NCBI RefSeq assembly: GCF_014489845.1
Contig: NZ_JABURY010000021.1
Location: 62,001 to 126,000 of the forward strand
Direction of reading: 5' to 3'
From: Frischella japonica
GTDB taxonomy: Bacteria > Pseudomonadota > Gammaproteobacteria > Enterobacterales > Orbaceae
Length of the DNA stretch: 64,000 nucleotides
The notes under the pieces: model-generated
Databases searched by the model: none
What the model saw: only the letters and a program-made list of their open reading frames with translations
Told to the model about the DNA's origin: nothing
Shown here: positions 28,341 to 40,849 of the stretch, in pieces
Layout: each line of letters opens with the position of its first letter
Position numbering within the stretch: position 1 is the stretch's first letter
Made by a program: the position numbers and the translations under genes

Positions 28341-28934
28341 TTATTTCGCTTTGCGTAAATAACCCAAAACACGGTAATTATCAATCGTCCATAAGCCATC
28401 TTTAAATATTAATGGATAGGTAGCACGGCTGCTGGCATTAGGGCCTGGATTTTGTTGAACAATTTCAATTTCGTTAGCTGTAACATTACTAATTATGGCA
28501 ACATGACCATATAAGGATTTGCCTAACACAATTATATCTTCTACTTCTGGCTTAGTTGGTGAACCATTATGAAATTGTAATAAATTACGTTTAGCATTTA
28601 TTTGCCCATCAGCAATATCAGAATCAAAAAAATGCTTGGCATGCCCATAACTATCCGGCATTTTATGATTAAAACGCTCATAATAATAACGTTTAATGAA
28701 CTCAACACATTGATATTTTTGACCTAGATTATAACCATCTTTGGTCACATTACGACCGCTAACATTACCGATCTTACCATTATAATAAACATTCACGCCG
28801 TTAAATTGATCGACAATTTGGCCAATTTTGTCTTTATCTTCTAATTGTTCCAAATAAAAATATCGGTAATAGATAAAACAGCTTAATAAACTTAATATTA
28901 AAAAAAATAAAATTTTTTTCCTGTGTTTTAACAT
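28341..28934 (-). CDS. CHAP-domain amidase-like protein, membrane-anchored
   Basis: The 197-aa protein begins with basic residues and one hydrophobic segment (about 8-24), a signal anchor that would place the rest in the periplasm. The remainder is a CHAP (cysteine-histidine amidohydrolase/peptidase) domain with nucleophile C76 in KYQCVEFIKRYY and histidine H144 in LYGHVAII. CHAP domains hydrolyse peptidoglycan amides or glutathionylspermidine. The YQCVEF-RYY spelling is close to the amidase half of glutathionylspermidine synthetase (Gss). The function is unresolved between the two. It sits downstream of, and in the same direction as, the AAA+ operon but 233 bp apart, so co-transcription is uncertain. 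Confidence 0.78.
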   Translation of the reverse strand: MLKHRKKILFFLILSLLSCFIYYRYFYLEQLEDKDKIGQIVDQFNGVNVYYNGKIGNVSGRNVTKDGYNLGQKYQCVEFIKRYYYERFNHKMPDSYGHAKHFFDSDIADGQINAKRNLLQFHNGSPTKPEVEDIIVLGKSLYGHVAIISNVTANEIEIVQQNPGPNASSRATYPLIFKDGLWTIDNYRVLGYLRKAK

Positions 28935-29167: not shown

Positions 29168-32100
29168 TTATACTTTTAAGGATTGAACGCTTTGCACAAG
29201 ATCTGCTAACTGAGTCACAATTCTTGCGCCAGTATCACTATCATCACCGCCCAGAGCCTTGTTACGCATAAAATCTTGTTTGATCTGTTGCCAACGTACT
29301 TTTTGTTCAGCTGTTAATACATTACGAATTTCAGCTAATTTTAAGAGATTTTCCTCTGCACCATTGGTCAATAATTGAGCCTCACCTAAATAGTGATCTT
29401 CAATAACCTGATTGATCTCCTGTGCATTCATCACCGCTGAGATTTTTTCCGCTAATTTATTCATATTACGGTAACTACCTTGTAGTTTAAATGGCGGTTC
29501 AGTACGATATTTATCTGACTGTGCGGCGCTAATAATATATTGTTGATTAACTTTAAATACCACTTCACGGATAGTCAACAAATGTTTTAACACTGCAACA
29601 ATTTCACCGATCTCAGCTTGGCTATAGGTATAACTTAATTCATTAGTATTTAGCGGTTTACCTTGAGCATGATCGATTAAGTGATAAAGATCATTTAAAT
29701 CACGTAATGCTAATGGCGACAAAACACTATTTGACGTTAAACAGTTTTCAATATAGCTTGAAGCGAAGACCTCGTCCATTCCCCCTAACACTTCACCAAG
29801 ATTGTAAATATCGGCACGGTTAGCCAACATATCTGGGATCTTAAAGACTTCACCTGACTCGGTATACGGATTACCAGCCATAATGACACAGAACTTTTTA
29901 CCTCTTAAATCATAGGTTTTAGTTTTACCTTGCCATACCCCTTCAATACGACGGGAACCGTCACACAATGAAATAAATTTTTGTAAAAATTCAGGATGGG
30001 TATGTTGAATATCATCAAGATATAACATCACATTATTGCCCATCTCTAATGCAAGATTGAGTTTTTCCAACTCCTGACGAGCGGTCGCATTTGGAGCTTG
30101 TTGGGGATCAAAAGATAAAACACTATGTCCCAATGCTGGCCCATTAATTTTCATAAAAATTAAGCCTAAACGATTAGCCACATATTCCATTAGCGTTGTT
30201 TTACCATAGCCTGGCGGTGAAATCAGTAATAATAAGCCCATTAAATCAGTTCGCCGATTTTCACCTACCGTACCAATTTGTTTAGCTAAATTATCTCCTA
30301 TAATCGGTAAGTAAACTTGATTAATCAATTTATTTCTAACAAATGAGCTTAACGGTTTCGCCTTAAATTCATCCAAATGTAAATCATTACGCTGTTCATT
30401 TAATATTTCTTGACGTATAGTTTGATATTTCTGGAATTCAGGAATGACAATACGCGATTGATGGCGCATACGGGTAAAGAAATTATCAAGATTTATAGTC
30501 AATACACCTTGCTTAACTCGTTGATGTTGTCCTAATAAATCCCCTATCGTAATTTCCAGTTCCATTTCACTGATCGTAATATTGAGATGTGTCTGTTTAT
30601 CTAACAAACATAAAATCACTGCTTCAGCAATATAGCTTTGTAAAGCTTGATATTTTGGTAAAGTACATAAGCCTTTATACCAATTTTCAATTAATTGCCA
30701 TCGATCGGCAATGCGATCAGCTAGTTTCACCTGTGACTGGTTAAAATCACTCCACATATGGGATTGATTTAAATGATTTTTCAACTCGTCAAATAAACGT
30801 TTACTATATTTGCTTAATACAAATTCTTGGGGAACCACAGCTAAAGCATAGCTGAGATATTCGGCGGCTTGTTTAATATGAAAATGTTCATGTGCAATGG
30901 GATACTGGGACAAAAACAACGTTAACTCATTGGCAATTTCTAAACGCAAGTTTTGTAATCCTTCGTCATGACCAAATAATGTGTAAATATCCATACAGGT
31001 TTTTGACCGTTCAGGCCACAAAGTCGCAATATCATTTTTTTGATTATAATGCCAATATAGGATGGCCAAACTACGAGCTAAAGGATTGTAACGCAACAAA
31101 CCTGCACTTTCACCCAATGGAATTAATTTGGCTATAATCTTTACCGCATCATGATCATGCACCCCTTTTTCATAACCTTCACGATACCTCACTGCGGCAT
31201 AATCGCGCACCGTTTTATTTAAACTATCTAATTGATTTACCTGCGTTGTTAAATCTGCATAGGTTAAACCATTTTCATTTTTCAGCGCCGAGGAAATAAT
31301 AGAATAGGCTAAATATTCAGCACGATAAACCGTTGTAGATTCTGATTCTAACGATAATGGCCAAAATGCTTTATAACTATTAAGTTTGGAATTGTTAATT
31401 TTTTCTTGATAATCAGTACCAGTAAGTTGTAAATAAAGATGGTCTTCTTTTGCCACCATGGTTAAATCAAGCTCTTGGGTATTAACACTGAATTTGTGGC
31501 GAGGACCTAATTTGATCACATTACCACCTGACTCAAAAATCTCTGATTTATCGCGTAATGTGCGAATAGCTTGATCTTTAGCACTTTTAAAACGCGATTC
31601 GATATCATCGGCTTTAACGTTATCAGATAAAGACCTAAGTTTTTCAACCAATTCCTTAATTTTCAGGGCTAACGTATCTGCAATAAAAAAAGCATTTAAC
31701 TCATTAGGATCCACAAATTTAGCCGTTCTGCGTGGAATGCTATCGAGAATTCTCTGCGCTGCTGTTTGCAATGCTTCAGATCGCTTGGTTCTCTCTTCGA
31801 GTAGTGCTTGTTTATGGGTTTCGAATGTTTCAAGTACTTCTTCTCTTTTAGATAAAATATCATTAAGAAATTCGTCACTATCACTAAATTGATTTTCAAG
31901 TTCTTCCAGTTGCACAAGTAAACGCGACAATTCATCATCACACTTTTCTGGTGTTGTTGAGATACTTAACGCATTGGCAATGCTTTGGTTAAACAACTTA
32001 AATTGGGCACCAAATTGTGCAACCATTTCAACATTAGCTAGACTTTTACGTTTTTGATTAATACGTGCTTTGGTTTGATTTAACTGGCTATAAACATCAG

Positions 32101-34111
32101 CAATAGCTTCTATAATTTTTGTCTGTAATGTGACATCATCAAATTTTAATGAAGCAATTAACTGAGACAGCATATCTAAGTCAACCGACATTTGTTCCGT
32201 TTGCTTAATGGCCTCGTTAAGTTGGACTGCTGTATCCGCTTTTGCAATAGTAGCTTCTAATTCATTAATTTTTGTTAAAAATGGCTTAAGCGCTTGTTCA
32301 CCAGCTAAAAATTTTGCGGTTGCCAAAGAAACGATAGATTGTCGTTCTTTTAATTCATTTTCCATCTGATCGAGCTGATCGAGATCAATATAACGATAGC
32401 TTCGTAAAGTAACAAGTTTCCCAAGTTGCATCTTAATAGCATTAAGTGCATCAACATACATTTGGGTCTCTTGCCATGTATCTGGATAAAGCGTGGTTAG
32501 TAATGCCTTCTGATCAGATATCGCCTCACGCATAGAACTATCAGACTGCCGACGAATACTTTCAACTTTCTCATACTCATCCAATACTAATTCACTAGTT
32601 TGACAAATATTATGTAGGTTGGTATTAAATGATAAATGACGTTCATCGTTCAACCAAAAATAACTATCAAATAAACGTTTGGTATCGGTGATCAATTTGC
32701 TATAAAGAGCAGATGAAACAGCCTGATTATCAATTTCACGAACAATAAAATAGAGATCAGAAATCCCCCTAACTAATTCAGCATTTCCAATTTTACCTAA
32801 GAAGCTATTATTAGTAGGTTGTTGTGCAGCATATTCATCACTGTAAAATGGCGTTTGCCAGATTTGCATTGGATGGACACGTGTAGGTTCATCACGTTCA
32901 CCTTCAAAAACCACCATTCGTCCATCTTCAAACACGGCATAACCATGACCAAGAATCGGACTACTGAGTTTTCGTTCAATCATATTGTAATTAAACAGTG
33001 CTAAACGGCCCGAATTCGGATCATAAAAGATGTACATCACATCTTCACCATTTGGTGAACGACGAATACGGCGGAACCGCATTCCTTCCATTGATTGATC
33101 AAAAGATTTATATTCACCGTTTTGTAAATAATAACCACCCGGAAAAATAACACCATGATCCTCTGGTAATTGAATGCAAGCTTGACCAATAGAATCGATA
33201 CGCTGAACCTTTTGAGTCAACGTATTATAAATAAGATATCGCCAATTCTCTTCGCGATAAGGTAATATTCTTAATAGAATTAAAGAACCCACTTTAGCAT
33301 ATTCAATTTTAGCATCGTTAAGCGATTGGTTTTTATCCAAAACTTCTTCACGATAAATACCCAAACCATCATTGGTATTATTCTCACATTTGATGGTTAG
33401 ATCACCGCCAATCGTTTCAACAAATACTGTATCTAAAATATTGATATGCGGAAAACGACCATTAACAATATTTTCACGCGTTGTTTCAACCCATTCAAAA
33501 TCATAAGCGGGCGGTAAGGCAATATCACGTTCACCACGATTATCAATATAATTAATGGTTTTTTTATCACTTGAAATAGACCAACGGAAAACCCGAATAT
33601 CACTAACCCTTTCACCAATTTGAAAACTTGCCAGTAATTTCCCATCTCGTTCAACTAATTGCAAAAGTTGAGCATTTTTATAATAAGTATAAAGTTCATT
33701 AAAATCTTGTACAAAACGCTCAATATTTAAAAAGGTATCACCCAGAGCAACCGGTTCAGTCTCGTAATTACCATCACGTTCTACTAACTGATAAAGTGAA
33801 AATACATCGGCTATTTTGGTCTCTTTTTTCAACCCTAGAAAGACGTTATAACCAAATAATAACCAATCACCAAATCGTACAATATCTCGAGCGATACAAT
33901 TATTTTCCGTACGAATACGAATTCGGCTAATAATTGACATATCACTTTTACCGAACTCAGACAATCTTTGTTGGTTTAATGCTTCCGTTTTTTGCTGTAG
34001 CTCTTGACCCAATGCGGTTAAACGTTTACGGAGAATTTCATAAGCACCGCCTTCGGCTACGGCATTATCCAGTGCTGTTTGCTGTTGATTATCTTGTTGA
34101 ACGTCTGTCAT
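29168..34111 (-). CDS. Giant AAA+ ATPase of the PspA-flotillin operon
   Basis: This 1647-aa protein is the largest in the window. Databases usually label relatives 'DNA repair ATPase', a name I would not take as function. Residues about 70-430 are rich in short beta-strand repeats typical of a propeller-like domain. Residues about 480-880 are long charged helices with coiled-coil character, and a helical region follows. The AAA+ module lies near the C-terminus: Walker A PPGYGKTT near residue 1302, Walker B VMLYLDDIQH near 1364, and sensor-1-like VIMAGNP near 1410. No signal peptide or membrane helix is seen, so it should be cytoplasmic. It ends a five-gene operon after the flotillin gene (121-bp gap). 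A chaperone/remodelling role at the membrane is inferred from partners. Confidence 0.8.
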   Translation of the reverse strand: MTDVQQDNQQQTALDNAVAEGGAYEILRKRLTALGQELQQKTEALNQQRLSEFGKSDMSIISRIRIRTENNCIARDIVRFGDWLLFGYNVFLGLKKETKIADVFSLYQLVERDGNYETEPVALGDTFLNIERFVQDFNELYTYYKNAQLLQLVERDGKLLASFQIGERVSDIRVFRWSISSDKKTINYIDNRGERDIALPPAYDFEWVETTRENIVNGRFPHINILDTVFVETIGGDLTIKCENNTNDGLGIYREEVLDKNQSLNDAKIEYAKVGSLILLRILPYREENWRYLIYNTLTQKVQRIDSIGQACIQLPEDHGVIFPGGYYLQNGEYKSFDQSMEGMRFRRIRRSPNGEDVMYIFYDPNSGRLALFNYNMIERKLSSPILGHGYAVFEDGRMVVFEGERDEPTRVHPMQIWQTPFYSDEYAAQQPTNNSFLGKIGNAELVRGISDLYFIVREIDNQAVSSALYSKLITDTKRLFDSYFWLNDERHLSFNTNLHNICQTSELVLDEYEKVESIRRQSDSSMREAISDQKALLTTLYPDTWQETQMYVDALNAIKMQLGKLVTLRSYRYIDLDQLDQMENELKERQSIVSLATAKFLAGEQALKPFLTKINELEATIAKADTAVQLNEAIKQTEQMSVDLDMLSQLIASLKFDDVTLQTKIIEAIADVYSQLNQTKARINQKRKSLANVEMVAQFGAQFKLFNQSIANALSISTTPEKCDDELSRLLVQLEELENQFSDSDEFLNDILSKREEVLETFETHKQALLEERTKRSEALQTAAQRILDSIPRRTAKFVDPNELNAFFIADTLALKIKELVEKLRSLSDNVKADDIESRFKSAKDQAIRTLRDKSEIFESGGNVIKLGPRHKFSVNTQELDLTMVAKEDHLYLQLTGTDYQEKINNSKLNSYKAFWPLSLESESTTVYRAEYLAYSIISSALKNENGLTYADLTTQVNQLDSLNKTVRDYAAVRYREGYEKGVHDHDAVKIIAKLIPLGESAGLLRYNPLARSLAILYWHYNQKNDIATLWPERSKTCMDIYTLFGHDEGLQNLRLEIANELTLFLSQYPIAHEHFHIKQAAEYLSYALAVVPQEFVLSKYSKRLFDELKNHLNQSHMWSDFNQSQVKLADRIADRWQLIENWYKGLCTLPKYQALQSYIAEAVILCLLDKQTHLNITISEMELEITIGDLLGQHQRVKQGVLTINLDNFFTRMRHQSRIVIPEFQKYQTIRQEILNEQRNDLHLDEFKAKPLSSFVRNKLINQVYLPIIGDNLAKQIGTVGENRRTDLMGLLLLISPPGYGKTTLMEYVANRLGLIFMKINGPALGHSVLSFDPQQAPNATARQELEKLNLALEMGNNVMLYLDDIQHTHPEFLQKFISLCDGSRRIEGVWQGKTKTYDLRGKKFCVIMAGNPYTESGEVFKIPDMLANRADIYNLGEVLGGMDEVFASSYIENCLTSNSVLSPLALRDLNDLYHLIDHAQGKPLNTNELSYTYSQAEIGEIVAVLKHLLTIREVVFKVNQQYIISAAQSDKYRTEPPFKLQGSYRNMNKLAEKISAVMNAQEINQVIEDHYLGEAQLLTNGAEENLLKLAEIRNVLTAEQKVRWQQIKQDFMRNKALGGDDSDTGARIVTQLADLVQSVQSLKV

Positions 34112-34232
34112 TTTTAACTCATTAATTATTATACAGAAAAGATGATTATTTTTACTCAGCCAATGAAGCGGCTGAGTAAAAACAGATAATGAAAATCACT
34201 TTATTACCAAGTGTTATAAAACAATCGCCTTA

Positions 34233-36332
34233 CTAGCTCTGATCAGAAGAAGATAAGAACTGTTTAGCTAATGCTTTTAAATCGGTATTACCAAGCGCTT
34301 CTTTAATATCGATATCCTTGTTATTTGATAAGCGAGCTAATACGGATTGTAATGCATTCTGTAGTACAGGGCTTTGACCGACAGCCCCTTCAATCGCTTT
34401 ACCTACACTAATTGCTTTTGAGAAGCTATTGAAGAAGTTATCATTACCACCCACAATTTCAATGTTAGCTTTACTAAACGCAGCCGCAAGTACTTCGGCT
34501 TGTTCTTTGGCAATTTCTTTATTCGCTGCAATCGCCGCCATCGCCTGTTCAAAACCTTTTTCCAATGCTAAGCGGAATTCTTCATGATTTTTTGATTGCT
34601 CATTCATTGTACCAAGAGCTTGGAACTTCTCAACCAAACCATTTGCTTCTGCCGTTAAGCGCTCACGAATCACTAGAGCATCAGCGATCCCAACTTCTTT
34701 GGTTGCAGTAGCTTTTGCTAAACCAATTCTTTCATCACCACGTGCTTGAGCAGAAAGTTTTTCTTCTAACACTTTTGCTTCTGTTAAACCTTGTTTTTCA
34801 AGGGCAATTGCTTTTGCCTCGATGACTTTTGCTTCGGCTAAGCCCTTCTCTTGATTACCCTTCGCTTCGGCTAATAATGTTTCAGCACAAACATGCGCTT
34901 TAACTAAACCTTCTTTTTCTTCAGCTTCAGCGCTGGCCTTACGTACGGTTGCTTCAGCAAGACCAATAGCAGCTTCTTCAGCCTCAACACCTTGCGCTAA
35001 TTGTTTTTTCGCTTCAGCGTTTTTAGCTGCTGCTTCAAGCTCAGCTTGAGCGATAATACTGATTTCGACCGCACGATGTTTCGCCGCTTGTTCATCTGCT
35101 TCTGCTTGTTTAACCTGTTTTACTAATTCTTGTTCGGCACGCGCTTGCGCATCAATAACTACAATTTGTTTGTCACGATCGGCTTTTGATACTTCACGCA
35201 CTTCTTTGATACGTTCCTCTTCTACAGCAACCGTTTTTTCAACAGATACACGTTCACGAATCACATTGGCGATATTCTTTTTTTCTTCTTCGAGTGCTTT
35301 ATCTTTTTCAATTCGTTGCAACTCAACTTCACGTTCACGAGCCACAACTTCTAAAGAGCGTGCTCTTTCTACACGTTCTTCTTCTATCGCAACAGCGCGT
35401 AAGCGGTTTTGTTGTGCTACTTCCACTTCACGCTGACGATTTTCTTCTCTGACTTCAATTTCTTGTTGAGCTTGAATTCGTGCTTGTTCTGCTTTTAAAC
35501 GTTCTTCTTCTTTCACTTTTAATGTTTCAGCAAGTTCACGAGCACGAATTGTTTCAATTTCACGTTTTTGGCGCGCTTCAGCATCCGCTTGTTGACGTTC
35601 AAGTTCAAGTTTAGCTTCTATTGTTTCGGTATCTTTCTTTTTTAATGCTAATTCAAGATCTCGTTCACGTTTATTGGTTTCATCTTTATGAATTGCTGTA
35701 ATATAGGTGATTTTATTAATCCCTTCAGCATCAAAAATATTATCTGGATCTAGTGAACGAATTGGTGTTTGTTCTAAATAGTCAATGGCAACGTCCTCTA
35801 AAGCATAACCATTTAAATCTTTACCAATAACATCAATAATACGCTCACGGAAATTCATTCGATCTTCAAATAATTTAGCTAACTCAAATTGCTTACCTAC
35901 GGTTTTTAATGCTTCGGAAAATTTAGCACTAAATAAGGAACTCACTGCTTTTTGATCTGAAGCACGATCAACACCGATTGATTTAGCAACTTTCAAAACA
36001 TCTTCGGTTGTTTCATTAACGCGTAAATAAAAAGCGACACAAATATCTGCCCGCAAATTATCTTTACAAATCAAACCATCTTTACCACGACGTTCAACAT
36101 CAAAAGAGATTAAAGATATTTTCATGAACTCTTTTTTGTAGATTACCGGATAAACTAATGCACCAGTAAAATGTACCTTAGGGCTTGATGTCATATCATT
36201 AACAATTAACGCCGTTCCTTGTGGTACCTTGATATAAAATGATTTAAATAATGCTATAAAACCGACAATGATAATGGCAATAATCGCAATCACAATGCCA
36301 AAAAGTGTTAAACTATCAAAACTAAAACCCAT
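34233..36332 (-). CDS. yqiK: Flotillin/SPFH-family membrane protein, YqiK-like
   Basis: Flotillins organise membrane microdomains and cooperate with NfeD-type proteins. The 699-aa product has one N-terminal membrane helix (about 10-32) and an SPFH/band-7 domain (about 35-200). A very long, highly charged coiled-coil follows (about 210-560), with repeated AEA/KEE patterns and glutamine-alanine repeats. The C-terminal helical region ends near LSSSDQS. It has the length and spelling of the YqiK type. It lies 26 bp downstream of the YqiJ-like gene, its usual partner. A scaffold role at stressed membrane is inference from family and context. Confidence 0.88.
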   Translation of the reverse strand: MGFSFDSLTLFGIVIAIIAIIIVGFIALFKSFYIKVPQGTALIVNDMTSSPKVHFTGALVYPVIYKKEFMKISLISFDVERRGKDGLICKDNLRADICVAFYLRVNETTEDVLKVAKSIGVDRASDQKAVSSLFSAKFSEALKTVGKQFELAKLFEDRMNFRERIIDVIGKDLNGYALEDVAIDYLEQTPIRSLDPDNIFDAEGINKITYITAIHKDETNKRERDLELALKKKDTETIEAKLELERQQADAEARQKREIETIRARELAETLKVKEEERLKAEQARIQAQQEIEVREENRQREVEVAQQNRLRAVAIEEERVERARSLEVVAREREVELQRIEKDKALEEEKKNIANVIRERVSVEKTVAVEEERIKEVREVSKADRDKQIVVIDAQARAEQELVKQVKQAEADEQAAKHRAVEISIIAQAELEAAAKNAEAKKQLAQGVEAEEAAIGLAEATVRKASAEAEEKEGLVKAHVCAETLLAEAKGNQEKGLAEAKVIEAKAIALEKQGLTEAKVLEEKLSAQARGDERIGLAKATATKEVGIADALVIRERLTAEANGLVEKFQALGTMNEQSKNHEEFRLALEKGFEQAMAAIAANKEIAKEQAEVLAAAFSKANIEIVGGNDNFFNSFSKAISVGKAIEGAVGQSPVLQNALQSVLARLSNNKDIDIKEALGNTDLKALAKQFLSSSDQS

Positions 36333-36358
36333 ATTTTTTATTCTCCAAAAATTTACCT

Positions 36359-37018
36359 TTACGATCCATTAAATTCATCAATACTCACGATTTGATAGCT
36401 ATTATAAGTTGCATCATAATTAAGCAATATAGCTTTATCACCACGTTTAAATTGATATGATTCATCACACCTAACTTGTAAAATTAATCCAGCCCCCCCA
36501 TCTTCATAAATTGCTTCACCTTTATCATTATTTACAACACTTGAACGAATGACGACGGTTTGTCCAAGTAAAGTCTTATGATTTGTCGCATTCAATTGCT
36601 TAAATAGCGGCCGTATTGGTCTAATAATAAAAGCTGTAATATATATAGCGATGATTAATACTACAAAAAATACAACGATACCCGCTGGATAATAAATCCA
36701 TGGCACATCATAAAAAGGGAGGAGTAATAATTGAAAAGAACTATAAGAAATGATCCAACCAATCAACGAAATTAGCGTAATAATCAAGGTTAACGGGACT
36801 TGATTAAAACCAAATTTCATTAGAAGTCCCCCCAAACTGGTTGAAGGTATTTCCGCGTGATAGGCATCAACATCAAGGTCAAGATCGAGATCAAAATTAA
36901 GACAGTCTATAGCCAGTATACCCATTGCCGCAAACAGCCAATATAAAACACATAAAGTCAGTAAGCCACTGTAAATTACCACAGGAAAGGCAAGAAATAT
37001 ACTGACAAAAATATCCAT
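36359..37018 (-). CDS. yqiJ: YqiJ/NfeD-like membrane protein with OB-fold domain
   Basis: The 219-aa protein has hydrophobic segments at about 5-38, 73-100 and 107-131, followed by a soluble C-terminal OB-fold-like region (about 140-219). It is the YqiJ type, which pairs with YqiK flotillins in the way NfeD pairs with SPFH proteins. An acidic run of alternating D and L (about 43-51) precedes the second membrane segment. It lies between the pspA-like gene (100-bp gap) and yqiK-like gene. No catalytic residues are visible; a structural role is likely. Confidence 0.85.
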   Translation of the reverse strand: MDIFVSIFLAFPVVIYSGLLTLCVLYWLFAAMGILAIDCLNFDLDLDLDVDAYHAEIPSTSLGGLLMKFGFNQVPLTLIITLISLIGWIISYSSFQLLLLPFYDVPWIYYPAGIVVFFVVLIIAIYITAFIIRPIRPLFKQLNATNHKTLLGQTVVIRSSVVNNDKGEAIYEDGGAGLILQVRCDESYQFKRGDKAILLNYDATYNSYQIVSIDEFNGS

Positions 37019-37118
37019 TGTTATTTTTCCTTTTTATCCAAGATATCTGTGTGACATATTTTATGTTAGTTATTTTTTGCTATTTTAGCCTAAAAAAATC
37101 AAAAATAAATCACTTCAC

Positions 37119-37811
37119 TTATTTAGCATTTTTTTCTTTTAATTTTGCTAAAATGATCGCAGCATTTTGATTTTCTGATTTAATTCCGGCTGCTTTTAAT
37201 TTAGCATCTAATGGATCATGATTTTCTGACTGCGCTAATTCATTTTTCGCTTCAATTGTTGCCGCATTTTTTTCCTGACGCTGTTTAATTCTATCTAAGG
37301 AATCCAATGCTGTTTGTAATTTTGCTGTTGATCCCCCATAGCGTTGAGAAACAGCAGACTGTGCTTTTTGTACACTTTCTGTTGCCTTTACAATATCAAC
37401 TTGTTGTTTTAAATTGCGAATATTAATTTCGGTTTGTGAAATAGTTTGTCGCAAATTCGTTACACTTTCAGCAAACGCTTTAGCTTGTTTTTGCTGACCA
37501 GCTAATACATTTTCAAGTTGCGAGATTTTTTCTGCAACTTCTAACGCTAATACTTCATCATTATTATCTAACGCTTTAAGTGCATAACCTTCATATTCAG
37601 TAATTTTCGATTGCGTTTCAACAACTTGTTTATCAGCCATTTTCTGCTGGGCCATAACACTAGCTAACGCTTCCTTCGCTTGTTTTAATTCACTATCAGC
37701 ATCACGAATTTCTTGATCTAAAATACGTAATGCTTGTGTATCAATAATCGCTTCGCCAGCTTCATTTATGCCACCACGCAATGCCGTAATTAATTTTGAT
37801 AATATTGCCAT
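37119..37811 (-). CDS. PspA/IM30-family membrane-stress protein (YjfJ-like)
   Basis: PspA/Vipp1 proteins are ESCRT-III-like coiled-coil proteins that bind and repair stressed inner membrane. The 230-aa product is almost entirely helical, with the family pattern in MAILSKLITALRGGINEAGEAIIDTQ at the N-terminus and long heptad-rich helices. It lacks the PspF-binding psp operon context and matches better the YjfJ branch. It is second in the operon, 36 bp after the DUF2170 gene. Membrane binding by the N-terminal amphipathic helix is expected from the family. Confidence 0.88.
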   Translation of the reverse strand: MAILSKLITALRGGINEAGEAIIDTQALRILDQEIRDADSELKQAKEALASVMAQQKMADKQVVETQSKITEYEGYALKALDNNDEVLALEVAEKISQLENVLAGQQKQAKAFAESVTNLRQTISQTEINIRNLKQQVDIVKATESVQKAQSAVSQRYGGSTAKLQTALDSLDRIKQRQEKNAATIEAKNELAQSENHDPLDAKLKAAGIKSENQNAAIILAKLKEKNAK

Positions 37812-37847
37812 TTTTAAACCTCGTATTCTTTCTAATTCGATTAATGA

Positions 37848-38501
37848 TTAATCTTGTTTATTTATATTTAAATAATGTTCATAAGCTTCTGTTGCTTTAA
37901 TAACATTATCGGAAAGCATTTCAAGTTCATAAATAATATTACTTAATAACGATGTTGAACTTAATGCACCATACATTATATAGTTAACGCTACCATCACC
38001 GGCTTTTTCAATGGCAATAGTCGATAACGGGAAAAGTTTACGCGTACACAATACATCCTGATTAAATTTTTCTGGTTGGTTAACCATGTTTACCGGCCAA
38101 AGCAATGCTTCAACCATGATTTGTTGATTAGAAACACTTAAAAATAGCGGTAAATCACCATACTGATGCATAATTATATGCAAGCAGGCATCAACACCAT
38201 CAATGATTTCAATGCTCGCCGTACCTTGTGTAAATAAAGGTTCCTTTTTTAAGGTTTGGTAAAGATCGGTAATACCCCATACTTCATTTTTTTTCATTGT
38301 ATTTTTTTCCTGTAGTTTGTTCGTATTTATATCTTGGACATTATTTTGAAATTGGCGTAATTTCAGTTCTATTTCCTGTAATTTAGGTGTATTTTCTGGC
38401 AAAATCCACACTTCTTTTTTTACAAAACCTTGTTCTTGTAGACGTTGACGATAGCGTCTTTGATAAAAAGCAGAATTCTTAATTGGTTGCGTTTTTTCCA
38501 T
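37848..38501 (-). CDS. yjfI: YjfI-like DUF2170 protein with basic N-terminal extension
   Basis: The C-terminal portion (about residues 72-217) matches the DUF2170/YjfI family, with the hallmark GDLPLFLSVS...MVEALLWPV and YIMYGALSSTS segments. The E. coli protein has only this part (about 133 aa). Here a 70-residue N-terminal extension has a basic helix AFYQRRYRQRLQEQG followed by a strand-like KKEVWILPE and another helix. That pattern resembles a ribbon-helix-helix DNA-binding unit. An internal ATG near residue 69 could give a short form. It is first in the operon; a regulatory role is inference. Confidence 0.82.
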   Translation of the reverse strand: MEKTQPIKNSAFYQRRYRQRLQEQGFVKKEVWILPENTPKLQEIELKLRQFQNNVQDINTNKLQEKNTMKKNEVWGITDLYQTLKKEPLFTQGTASIEIIDGVDACLHIIMHQYGDLPLFLSVSNQQIMVEALLWPVNMVNQPEKFNQDVLCTRKLFPLSTIAIEKAGDGSVNYIMYGALSSTSLLSNIIYELEMLSDNVIKATEAYEHYLNINKQD

Positions 38502-38560
38502 ATAATTTGGCTAACAAAAAATGACATATTTAATAAAAGTAGATGAAGACATTTTATCAC

Positions 38561-38597
38561 AATAATCTTACATGTAAATATCACATGTAAGATTATT
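38561..38597. promoter_or_regulatory. Perfect 15-bp palindrome upstream of the yjfI-pspA operon
   Basis: Arms AATAATCTTACATGT and ACATGTAAGATTATT flank a 7-nt spacer about 60 bp upstream of the first gene of the operon. Its perfection and place suggest an operator; a terminator from typA is less likely, because typA already has one at 38718-38752. Confidence 0.5.
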
Positions 38598-38766: not shown

Positions 38767-40590
38767 TTAGTCGTTATTATTATTTCTGAATGCTCGTTTA
38801 CGATCATTTTCCGTCAAATGACGCTTACGTAAACGAACGGATAATGGTGTAACCTCAACTAATTCATCATCATCAATAAATTCTAATGACTGTTCTAAGG
38901 TCATTTTAATTGGTGGTGATAGTGTTGTGGCTTCATCTGTACCGGCAGCTCGCATATTGGTTAATTTTTTACCAGTTAAACAGTTTACAGTTAAATCATT
39001 TGAGCGAGTATGAATACCGATGATTTGGCCTTCATATACTTCTACACCATGTCCGATAAATAAACGACCACGATCTTGTAAGCTATGTAATGCATATTCT
39101 AACGCTTTACCTGTTCCATTAGAAATTAATACCCCGTTAATACGTTGTCCAATCTCACCAGGACGCACATCATCATAATGGCTGAAAGTTGAATAAAGTA
39201 AACCAGTACCAGAAGTCATCGTTAAAAATTCAGTTCTAAAGCCAATTAAGCCACGGCTTGGAATATCGTAATCCAATCGCACTCGACCTTTACCATCTGG
39301 CATCATATTAGTCAGATTACCTTTACGTAAACCTAGTGCTTCCATTACCGGACCTTGGTGCTGTTCTTCAACATCAATGGTAACTTGTTCAAACGGCTCT
39401 TGTTTACGTCCATCAATCTCTTTAAAGATAACTTTTGGACGTGAAACTGCTAATTCATATCCTTCACGACGCATATTTTCGATTAATACGGAAAGATGCA
39501 ATTCGCCACGACCTGAGACTTTAAAAGCATCTGGATCAGGGGTTTCTTCAACACGTAATGCCACATTATGCACTAACTCTTTCTTTAAACGCTCTAAAAT
39601 TTGACGTGAAGTGACAAATTTTCCTTCTTTTCCAGCGAATGGGGATGTATTAACATTAAAAAACATGGTCACAGTTGGTTCATCAACTGTTAAAGCTGGT
39701 AGTGCTTCAACAGCATTGACATCACAAATCGTATCAGAGATATTTAAATCCCCTAATCCCGTTAAAGCGATAATATCGCCAGCTTCAGCAACATCAGCTT
39801 CATAACGTTGAAGACCTAAATGTCTTAAAACTTGTCCCACTTTACCATTACGCTTTTTACCTTCAGCATCAATAATCGTAATTTGTTGATTTGGTTTGAT
39901 ACGACCTCGTTTAACACGCCCAATACCGATTACACCCACATAACTATTATAATCAAGCTGAGAAATTTGCATTTGGAATGGACCATCAACATCAACTTTT
40001 GGTGGCTCAACATGTTTAACAATCGCTTCAAATAGCGGTGTCATATCTTCTGCCATAGCCTCATGATCTTCACCCGCTACACCCATTAATGCGGAAGCAT
40101 AAATAATGGGAAAATCCAATTGTTCATCTGTGGCACCGAGATTAACAAATAAATCAAAAACTTGATCAACTACCCAATCAGGACGAGCACCTGGACGGTC
40201 TACTTTATTAATCACAACAATTGGTTTTAAACCATAAGCAAACGCTTTTTGCGTTACAAAACGGGTTTGTGGCATTGGTCCATCCATAGCATCAACCAGC
40301 AATAGCACAGAATCAACCATTGACATAACCCGCTCAACCTCACCACCAAAATCAGCATGGCCTGGGGTATCGACAATATTAATACGGTAACCATTCCAAT
40401 CAATCGCCGTATTTTTTGCCAAAATGGTAATACCACGTTCTTTCTCTAACGCATTGGAATCCATAACACGTTCAGTGTCATCACCACGTGAATCAAGGGT
40501 TCCCGATTGTTTAAGGAGTTTATCAACCAATGTCGTTTTACCATGGTCAACGTGCGCAATAATGGCAATATTTCTTATATTTTCAATCAC
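38767..40590 (-). CDS. typA: Ribosome-associated GTPase BipA/TypA
   Basis: BipA is a translational GTPase related to EF-G that assists 50S assembly, especially in cold. A GTG at 40590 is chosen as start: it gives [17 protein letters not shown] and 607 aa, exactly the E. coli length, and GGA lies 10 bases upstream. A longer TTG frame from 40632 is unlikely. G1 AHVDHGKTT is at residues 12-20, followed by the G2 region ERGITI, G3 DTPGHAD and G4 NKVD. Domains III, V and the BipA-specific C-terminal domain with [17 protein letters not shown] follow. It is monocistronic, with its own terminator. Confidence 0.96.
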
Positions 40591-40849
40591 AATATCGATT
40601 CCAGAAAAAATTAACAGGATAATTAGGCGCAAAATTATACACCTTTTTTGAAATAAGTGTTGATCTTAAAGATAAATAATTACTTTTTTATTCCATATAG
40701 TGACATTTTTTAGCTAACAGATAAAAAATTAAACCAATATGTTGATTTATTTTAATAAATCAACCAGTTACATTTAATATTATAACTGATTGATTTTATT
40801 GAATATAATATGTTTATATTCTAATTTTAATACCAATCATTTTTGAGTA

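What the first reader, a model, noticed from the sequence alone, without database searches (positions are those of the whole stretch)
29168..38501. Five-gene membrane-stress operon: DUF2170, PspA-like, YqiJ/NfeD-like, flotillin, giant AAA+ ATPase
All five genes are co-oriented with gaps of roughly 26-121 bp. The set unites an ESCRT-III-like membrane remodeller, an SPFH scaffold, its NfeD-type partner and a 1647-aa ATPase, with a palindrome upstream. Parts of it (yjfI-yjfJ; yqiJ-yqiK) are known separately in E. coli. Together with the ATPase they look like a complete membrane surveillance and remodelling machine whose biochemical job is not established. The absence of pspF/pspBC suggests a control circuit different from the classical Psp response.
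Basis: partly seen in the sequence, partly recalled or inferred. Interest (0 to 1): 0.7.

Follow-up and report, generated by a model that had tools for sequence, protein, structure and literature searches.

The report
Self-repressing bacterial membrane-stress operon (bac)
A known five-gene bacterial membrane-stress operon appears to be switched off by its own first gene product, through a DNA-binding end that earlier studies of the protein left out, at a conserved DNA site found next to the same operon in many bacteria.

Summary
The five genes are real and correctly placed, but the operon is not new: it is the bac operon of Pseudomonas aeruginosa (bacA-E), a CesT/Tir-PspA-YqiJ-flotillin-AAA+ class catalogued in 2024. 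In the window's family, DUF2170, PspA and the ATPase occur in the same 19 of 36 genomes. What looks new is the control circuit. BacA (DUF2170) carries a conserved ~50-residue basic N-terminal domain, absent from the crystal structure and from the annotated 16-kDa P. aeruginosa protein, with weak similarity to plasmid repressors. Genes encoding this domain have at least two ACATGT boxes (consensus TTACATGTAA) upstream in 63 of 66 cases, DUF2170 genes lacking it in 0 of 29, background windows in 0 of 5311. The boxes flank or overlap the -35 of a sigma-70-type promoter. Outside the window's family that promoter ends 5-9 nt before the BacA start codon in 47 of 53 genes (shuffles: mean 4.3), predicting a leaderless mRNA. 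An internal start with a Shine-Dalgarno (59 of 66) would give a CesT-only form. Best reading: long BacA is the autorepressor, and BacA-PspA binding couples it to membrane stress. Operator and domain are solid comparative results; DNA binding, isoforms and PspA titration are inferred.

The parts
37848..38501 (-). bacA (DUF2170/YjfI family, 217 aa): N-terminal basic domain plus CesT/Tir-like domain; proposed autorepressor
38337..38501 (-). N-terminal domain of BacA (about aa 1-55), absent from crystal 8Q8O and from short-form DUF2170 proteins; proposed DNA-binding domain
   Evidence: conserved in 48 aligned sequences; weak match of the UrfF 'plasmid repression protein' profile to 30 of 30 (for the window's own sequence E 0.012); AlphaFold helix-extended-helix; coding signature
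37866..38285 (-). CesT/Tir-like chaperone domain of BacA (aa 73-212)
   Evidence: phmmer to 8Q8O E 1.1e-36; Foldseek top match 8q8o
38295..38297 (-). internal in-frame ATG (Met69) with Shine-Dalgarno-like AGGA; predicted start of short BacA (CesT only)
   Evidence: duplex energy -4.3 against +1.3 kcal/mol at the full-length ATG; conserved position
38568..38590 (-). operator core TTACATGTGATATTTACATGTAA: two ACATGT boxes 13 bp apart, inside a 37-bp inverted repeat
38551..38578 (-). sigma-70-like promoter, TTTACA-16-TAAAAT, its -35 inside the operator
   Evidence: consensus scan; not better than chance on its own, supported by a like arrangement in 10 of 13 family loci
37119..37811 (-). bacB: PspA/IM30 (ESCRT-III superfamily), the only PspA_IM30 match of this genome
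36359..37018 (-). bacC: YqiJ/short-NfeD-like membrane protein
   Evidence: 43% identity to the PA7 bacC gene; named short NfeD in PMC13086221
34233..36332 (-). bacD: SPFH/flotillin-like protein, 699 aa
   Evidence: 71% identity to the PA7 bacD/PaFlo3 gene
34147..34184 (-). strong hairpin between bacD and bacE, a stem present in 19 of 19 family loci while its sequence changes; role open (processing, stability or attenuation)
29168..34111 (-). bacE: DUF3686 - DUF7902 - AAA+ ATPase, 1647 aa; Walker A-like GYGKTT, LYLDD, AGNP

Best explanation
This is the bac-type (non-classical) Psp operon. Shown by comparison: its first gene makes a two-domain protein, a basic N-terminal domain fused to a CesT/Tir-like domain, and paired TTACATGTAA boxes upstream go with that N-terminal domain and not with DUF2170 in general. 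Inferred: full-length BacA is the dedicated autorepressor. Its N-terminal domains bind the paired boxes, which straddle or overlap the -35 element of a sigma-70-type promoter, and shut the operon. Its CesT domain binds BacB (PspA), so when PspA is drawn to damaged membrane, or its level changes, BacA is reset and the operon is induced. BacB (ESCRT-III-like), the NfeD-flotillin pair and the large AAA+ ATPase then remodel or stabilise the inner membrane. The gene also carries a second, internal ribosome start giving a CesT-only protein, probably the chaperone form. In lineages other than the window's, the long form is predicted to be read from a leaderless mRNA, so translation conditions could set the long:short ratio. 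The least certain step is which way PspA binding acts.
For: Boxes: at least two ACATGT within 200 bp upstream in 63 of 66 deduplicated genes with the N-terminal domain, 0 of 29 without, 0 of 5311 background windows. In the window's family the operator pattern (up to 2 mismatches) is in 24 of 44 genomes, the reversed control pattern in 0; all 24 have bacA beside it, and the 17 genomes scanned and found without DUF2170 have none. P. aeruginosa PA7 has one such pair in 6.6 Mb, upstream of bacA. N-terminal domain: matched by UrfF 'plasmid repression protein F' in 30 of 30 (best 5.3e-6), RepC_IncLM 10 of 30 (best 0.0087), MazE-like 20 of 30 (best 0.0035), phage transcriptional regulator phrog_536 21 of 30 (best 0.0039); RepC of IncL/M plasmids is a repressor of the repA promoter (PMC12365149, passages). 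Promoter: -10 ends 5-9 nt before the ATG in 47 of 53 genes outside the window's family, shuffles mean 4.3, max 12. Internal start: Shine-Dalgarno energy <= -4 in 59 of 66, against 92 of 813 equal-sized in-frame control windows, 9 of 66 full-length starts and 82 of 751 other ATGs. Literature: a bacA transposon mutant raises BacB-F 6- to 13.5-fold (PMC10948618); BacA-BacB predicted to bind, 0.981 (PMC13092808); operon up in phage infection (PMC12041424).
Against: No DNA binding, transcription start or isoform was measured. The fold of the N-terminal domain is not established: alone it models as helix-extended-helix (mean pLDDT 78, pTM 0.41), in the full-length model it is of low confidence, and Foldseek finds no PDB match. 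The family similarities are weak: UrfF scores 15.6 bits for the window's sequence against a cut-off of 100, and families of unknown or unrelated function also match (phrog_11804 in 19 of 30; Ser_hydrolase in 7 of 30). In the window's lineage the predicted -10 lies about 50 nt before the ATG, so the leaderless reading does not apply there. Seven of 66 genes lack any internal start codon at that place, and in the window its Shine-Dalgarno is only -4.3. Three of 66 lack exact boxes (diverged copies). In the scan of 15 named genomes, 4 give no pair, two Hahella genomes give one further pair elsewhere, and the reversed control pattern gives one or two hits in 6 of 15. Two P. aeruginosa papers propose a sigma-54 promoter (PMC2587700, PMC10948618), and rpoN is present in 44 of 44 family genomes. 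The relatives are not phylogenetically independent.
Confidence: 0.72

Rival explanations
1. The operon is switched on by sigma-54 and an enhancer-binding protein as in classical Psp, and BacA acts only post-transcriptionally as a chaperone or anti-activator.
For: RpoN sites proposed upstream of bacA in P. aeruginosa (PMC2587700; PMC10948618); rpoN in 44 of 44 family genomes.
Against: No PspB or PspC match in the genome and no activator of PspF size among the strong matches. A sigma-70-type promoter sits at a near-fixed distance from the long ATG in 47 of 53 genes. The published gene model appears to start at the internal ATG (PA3732 given as 16 kDa), so a site placed upstream of that start could lie inside the N-terminal coding region; I could not see its exact position.
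Confidence: 0.15
2. The boxes are bound by another, unlinked regulator and BacA's N-terminal domain does something else, such as RNA, membrane or PspA binding.
For: Direct binding is not shown; the domain is basic and could bind RNA; P. aeruginosa PA3732 and the ATPase gene are linked to RsmA (PMC4066749; PMC8855297).
Against: Boxes go with the domain (63 of 66) and not with DUF2170 lacking it (0 of 29); in the window's family one place per genome with one exception, and none in the 17 genomes found to lack DUF2170; the domain weakly resembles small repressors.
Confidence: 0.12
3. An ordinary bac/Psp operon with an accidental palindrome; N-terminal region, internal start and promoter spacing are annotation artefacts.
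For: The operon itself is published; the promoter scan of the window alone is not above chance (44 found, 52 expected).
Against: Amino-acid conservation with 54% of differences at third codon positions, box statistics, near-fixed promoter distance, Shine-Dalgarno statistics.
Confidence: 0.03

Closest known systems
Pseudomonas aeruginosa bac operon (bacABCDEF, PA3732-PA3728 and the next gene)
   Same: Same first five genes in the same order (PA7 identities 46, 58, 43, 71 and 61%); shown to be one transcript by RT-PCR in PA14 (PMC10948618).
   Different: After the ATPase the next same-strand ORF of the window is a CHAP-domain protein 233 bp further on; it was not compared with bacF. Box spacing 13 instead of 22 bp; predicted mRNA leader; the crystallised BacA lacks the N-terminal domain.
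CesT/Tir-PspA-band-7/flotillin-AAA+-YqiJ gene neighbourhood (Ravi et al. 2024)
   Same: Same five families described there as a class of PspA operon (PMC11237479, passages).
   Different: In the passages seen, no operator, N-terminal DNA-binding domain or dual start is described.
Classical pspF-pspABC
   Same: PspA at the centre; a cytoplasmic partner regulates the operon.
   Different: No PspB/PspC, no PspF-sized activator; repression rather than sigma-54 activation is proposed.
E. coli yjfIJKL
   Same: DUF2170-PspA gene pair; raised in heat-evolved strains through a promoter deletion (PMC12492005, passages).
   Different: K-12 yjfI is 402 bp, without the N-terminal domain and without an ACATGT box in the 200 bp upstream; it is followed by DUF2491 and DUF350 genes.
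Lambda cI and other leaderless autorepressors (recalled)
   Same: Autorepressor predicted to be read from a leaderless mRNA, in lineages other than the window's.
   Different: Unrelated protein; here a CesT chaperone domain is the partner domain, and a second start lies inside the gene.

Membership tests
bac-type / CesT-PspA-flotillin-AAA+ operon | bacA-bacB-bacC-bacD-bacE in this order, one strand | tested here: met
   PA7 order; 19 of 19 family loci (one, L046, has an extra ORF between bacC and bacD); 54 of 65 named loci
bac-type / CesT-PspA-flotillin-AAA+ operon | BacA is a CesT/Tir-fold DUF2170 protein | tested here: met
   PF09938 150.7 bits; 8Q8O E 1.1e-36; Foldseek; NCBIfam BacA model 279.4 bits against a cut-off of 300, so below the Pseudomonas equivalog threshold
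bac-type / CesT-PspA-flotillin-AAA+ operon | Single transcript | not testable with these tools
   shown for PA14 in PMC10948618; here only spacing and orientation; a hairpin precedes bacE
Classical Psp response | PspB and PspC present | tested here: not met
   no match in the genome
Classical Psp response | PspF-type sigma-54 activator divergent from pspA | tested here: not met
   the next ORF upstream of bacA (38767-40632) is on the same strand and reads as a translation-factor-like GTPase (that name recalled, not searched); the strong activator domains lie elsewhere, in frames of 427-948 aa
ESCRT-III with Vps4-type AAA+ | AAA+ of Vps4 type with MIT domain | tested here: not met
   Best AAA match is AAA_5 (dynein-related), N-terminus DUF3686; no MIT hit at E up to 0.01
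Ribbon-helix-helix repressors | strand followed by two helices, DNA bound by a dimer | tested here: inconclusive
   model shows helix 10-23, extended 24-34, helix 35-49; no PDB match; only weak profile similarity to small repressors
Autorepressor | operator overlapping the gene's own promoter | tested here: met
   site geometry and co-occurrence only, by sequence; binding not tested
Autorepressor | loss of the protein derepresses the operon | not tested
   reported for a PA14 bacA transposon mutant: BacB-F up 6- to 13.5-fold (PMC10948618)

The most novel reading that the evidence does not exclude
One gene encodes both an operon repressor and its own chaperone-only form. The long BacA, read without a Shine-Dalgarno (in most lineages sampled from a leaderless mRNA), represses through paired TTACATGTAA boxes; the short BacA, from a strong internal start, carries PspA. 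Translation state and PspA occupancy together would set induction: a PspF-independent Psp switch, spread over many gammaproteobacterial groups and missed because the P. aeruginosa gene model and crystal contain only the short form.
Probability: 0.5. Interest if true: 0.78.

Novelty: new variant of a known kind. Interest (0 to 1): 0.64.

Why it matters
How Psp-like operons without PspF are controlled is open: the 2024 BacA study inferred negative control by BacA without a mechanism. The operator, the missing domain and the two predicted starts give a concrete, cheap test, and would mean that the published BacA structure lacks its DNA-binding part and that the transposon mutant removes a repressor rather than only a chaperone. 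It also offers a case of a repressor whose amount may depend on leaderless translation.

Tried and rejected
Novel machine: rejected, because the five-gene set is in print. Anti-phage defence island: PADLOC gave only weak matches, all to PspA (E 0.001-0.009); not pursued beyond the reported phage induction in P. aeruginosa. Intergenic hairpin 34184-34147 as a plain intrinsic terminator: a stem is present in 19 of 19 (mean z -4.7 against mononucleotide shuffles), and the terminator scan lists it, but no U-run follows the stem directly, so processing or attenuation are equally likely. No covariation count was run. Regulon elsewhere: extra box pairs in two Hahella genomes and one 2-mismatch site in G008 lie near genes with nothing in common. 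Fold of the N-terminal domain by Foldseek/VIA: no match. N-terminal profile against PDB sequences: four chance-level hits (best E 0.14). eLife 2022 Arc clusters (PMC8926400, passages): PA3729 appears there only in pull-down tables with fold change 1.3. UrfF literature search listed nothing relevant in the 10 rows shown. First genome-contig scan with the single sequence gave no relatives; the allowed second scan with alignment A1 gave 65. AlphaFold of the ATPase was not run: the two jobs went to BacA and its N-terminal domain.

Rows dropped or handled before counts: L025, L103, L088 and L100 (coordinates or contig edge) were left out. L146, first counted as short form, proved to be a frameshifted long form with three boxes and was removed. 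For short-form genes the upstream stretch was taken from the last possible start codon before the domain match. The family loci L002-L020 were not; 13 named Gilliamella loci stand for the family there, and the family was counted apart. In one search L129 and L130 were anchored on a wrong Trp; one search corrects this. Searches take the best of all start codons in 14 codons, which favours the internal start against single control ATGs; one search repeats the comparison with equal windows (59 of 66 against 92 of 813). In one search, 10 of the 11 loci without all five genes have under 10 kb downstream; of these L120, L126, L132 and L167 still show 4.5-8.4 kb without bacC-E, and L122 lacks them with 10 kb.
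Full report
OBSERVATION. The five ORFs, strands and spacings are as described. Domains: DUF2170; PspA_IM30; DUF3686-DUF7902-AAA_5. The YqiJ-like and flotillin-like proteins match no relevant Pfam model even at E = 10. They are identified through the P. aeruginosa PA7 operon, where all five genes lie in the same order with 46, 58, 43, 71 and 61% identity. PspA_IM30 has one match in this genome. PspB and PspC have none.

ALREADY KNOWN. Ravi et al. [quoted passage not shown] Wallart et al. 2024 (PMC10948618; outline, results, discussion and structure methods seen) show by RT-PCR that bacA-F is one operon, that a bacA transposon mutant raises BacB-F 6- to 13.5-fold, and solve BacA (8Q8O). Mace et al. 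2008 (PMC2587700, passages) give PA3732 as 16 kDa and propose an RpoN site. Other passages: PA3728-PA3732 rise in all phage-infected samples (PMC12041424); PA3732 is listed among RsmA targets with several sites round the Shine-Dalgarno (PMC4066749); BacA-BacB interaction predicted at 0.981 (PMC13092808); deletion of the flotillin gene alone lowers biofilm by about 20% (PMC13086221).

CO-OCCURRENCE. In 36 genomes of the window's family, DUF2170, DUF3686 and an above-cut-off PspA are present in the same 19 and absent from the same 17. All 19 loci keep the five genes in order; one (L046) has an extra 221-aa ORF between bacC and bacD. In the 24 other relatives of the same calls, 12 have DUF2170 and 5 of those DUF3686. 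Among 369 gammaproteobacteria sampled, 27 have DUF2170 and 10 DUF3686; all 10, the window's genome included, are among the 27. By the coordinates printed there, the two domains lie within about 6 kb of each other in 6 of the 10. In named loci 54 of 65 have all five in order; 10 of the other 11 have under 10 kb downstream.

TWO-DOMAIN BacA. The crystal chain aligns to window residues 73-212 only. Residues 1-55 form a separate conserved domain (invariant S10 Y13 R18 R20 G25 K28 W32 E45 R49 in 48 sequences). Third codon positions hold 54% of its nucleotide differences, so it is translated. Short-form DUF2170 proteins of other genomes lack it, E. coli K-12 YjfI among them (133 aa). In PA7 it is present in frame upstream of the crystallised part: the long protein has 206 aa, and the internal-ATG product would have 147 aa (by the positions), against a 146-aa crystal chain and the 16-kDa annotation. 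Profiles matched: UrfF plasmid repression protein 30 of 30 (best 5.3e-6; 0.012 for the window), RepC_IncLM 10 of 30, MazE-like 20 of 30 (best 0.0035), phrog_536 transcriptional regulator 21 of 30 (best 0.0039). All are weak, and some families of unknown or unrelated function match too. RepC represses the repA promoter (PMC12365149, passages). AlphaFold of the domain alone gives helix-extended-helix (mean pLDDT 78, pTM 0.41), with no PDB match. I therefore call it DNA-binding by inference and do not name its fold.

OPERATOR. All 19 family loci have the palindrome upstream of bacA. The pattern TYACATGTNATATTTACATGTRA (up to 2 mismatches) occurs in 24 of 44 family genomes, at one locus each except one extra 2-mismatch site in G008 (G030 has two overlapping copies); the reversed control pattern occurs in none. 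The five positive genomes not scanned for DUF2170 also carry bacA-bacB beside the site; three negative ones (G061, G062, G064) were not scanned. Across species, 63 of 66 deduplicated long-form genes have at least two ACATGT boxes within 200 bp; 0 of 29 short-form genes do (3 have one); 0 of 5311 background windows do. Fisher p = 2e-21, which ignores relatedness. E. coli K-12 yjfI, not in that count, has none. The consensus is TTACATGTAA, with box spacing 13 in the window's family and mostly 21-26 elsewhere. The three exceptions hold diverged copies. A strict but spacing-tolerant pair pattern scanned in 15 named genomes hits 11; each of the 11 has a pair at the bacA locus or, for two Hahella genomes, that pair and one further pair near unrelated genes. 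The reversed control pattern gives one or two hits in 6 of the 15, so a stray pair is within background. Of the four without a hit, two are Lysobacter with slightly different flanks; L136 lacks the N-terminal domain and L156 has diverged boxes.

PROMOTER AND STARTS. In genes outside the window's family, a TTGACA-17-TATAGT-like promoter lies with its -35 between the two boxes and its -10 ending 5-9 nt before the long ATG in 47 of 53 (43 at 6-7 nt); shuffles give a mean of 4.3, maximum 12. That predicts transcription starting at or next to the start codon. In the window's family the -35 TTTACA overlaps the second box, and in 10 of 13 loci the best -10 ends 33-48 nt before the ATG; in the window it ends about 50 nt before it. 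So the window's own mRNA should have a leader. The long ATG mostly lacks a Shine-Dalgarno (9 of 66 at or below -4 kcal/mol). An internal start just before the CesT domain has one in 59 of 66, against 92 of 813 equal in-frame windows elsewhere in the genes and 82 of 751 other ATGs. In the window the values are +1.3 for the long ATG and -4.3 for Met69.

MECHANISM. Shown by comparison: module, operator, domain association, promoter geometry and internal start signals. Reported by others: derepression on loss of bacA, phage induction and a predicted BacA-BacB complex. Inferred: the N-terminal domain binds the boxes, two isoforms are made, and PspA binding resets repression. The 2008 and 2024 sigma-54 proposals remain a rival, since rpoN is present throughout the family. 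I could not see the exact position of their site (figures are not held).

NOVELTY CLAIM AND ITS LIMITS. Searches of the held library for DUF2170 with PspA and flotillin, DUF3686, YjfI with PspA/operator, the PA37xx tags, TTACATGTAA, the PA14 tags, and YjfI with YjfJ found no description of this domain, operator or dual start in the listings and passages I read. Many subscription papers are not held.

Noticed in passing
window 34147-34184: Strong hairpin in the gap before the ATPase gene, a stem present in 19 of 19 family loci with changing sequence and no U-run directly after it; may set ATPase level.
   Followed up: partly
window 28341-28934 (-): Small CHAP-domain protein on the same strand 233 bp downstream of the operon, with a hydrophobic N-terminus; whether relatives have it there was not checked.
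   Followed up: no
L046 3435-4100: Same-genus relative has an extra 221-aa ORF inserted between bacC and bacD.
   Followed up: no
L174 2300-2520 and L175 2300-2520: Pseudomonas megaplasmids (pQBR103, pPma4326F) carry long-form bacA-bacB followed by DUF2491 (and in one a rhomboid or DUF350) genes, with one exact box and a variant inverted repeat TTTCATGTAAGG...CCTTACATGAAA.
   Followed up: partly
L146 upstream of 10001: bacA of a Cellvibrionaceae MAG has a frameshift in the N-terminal domain but keeps three boxes; sequencing error or loss of the long form.
   Followed up: no
L165 upstream of 3756: Both boxes changed together to an inverted TTACAGGTAA/TTACCTGTAA pair, suggesting altered specificity of that BacA.
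   Followed up: no
G041:C42:208579-209916: DUF3686 ATPase gene with one in-frame TGA in a genome where it is on another contig than DUF2170.
   Followed up: no
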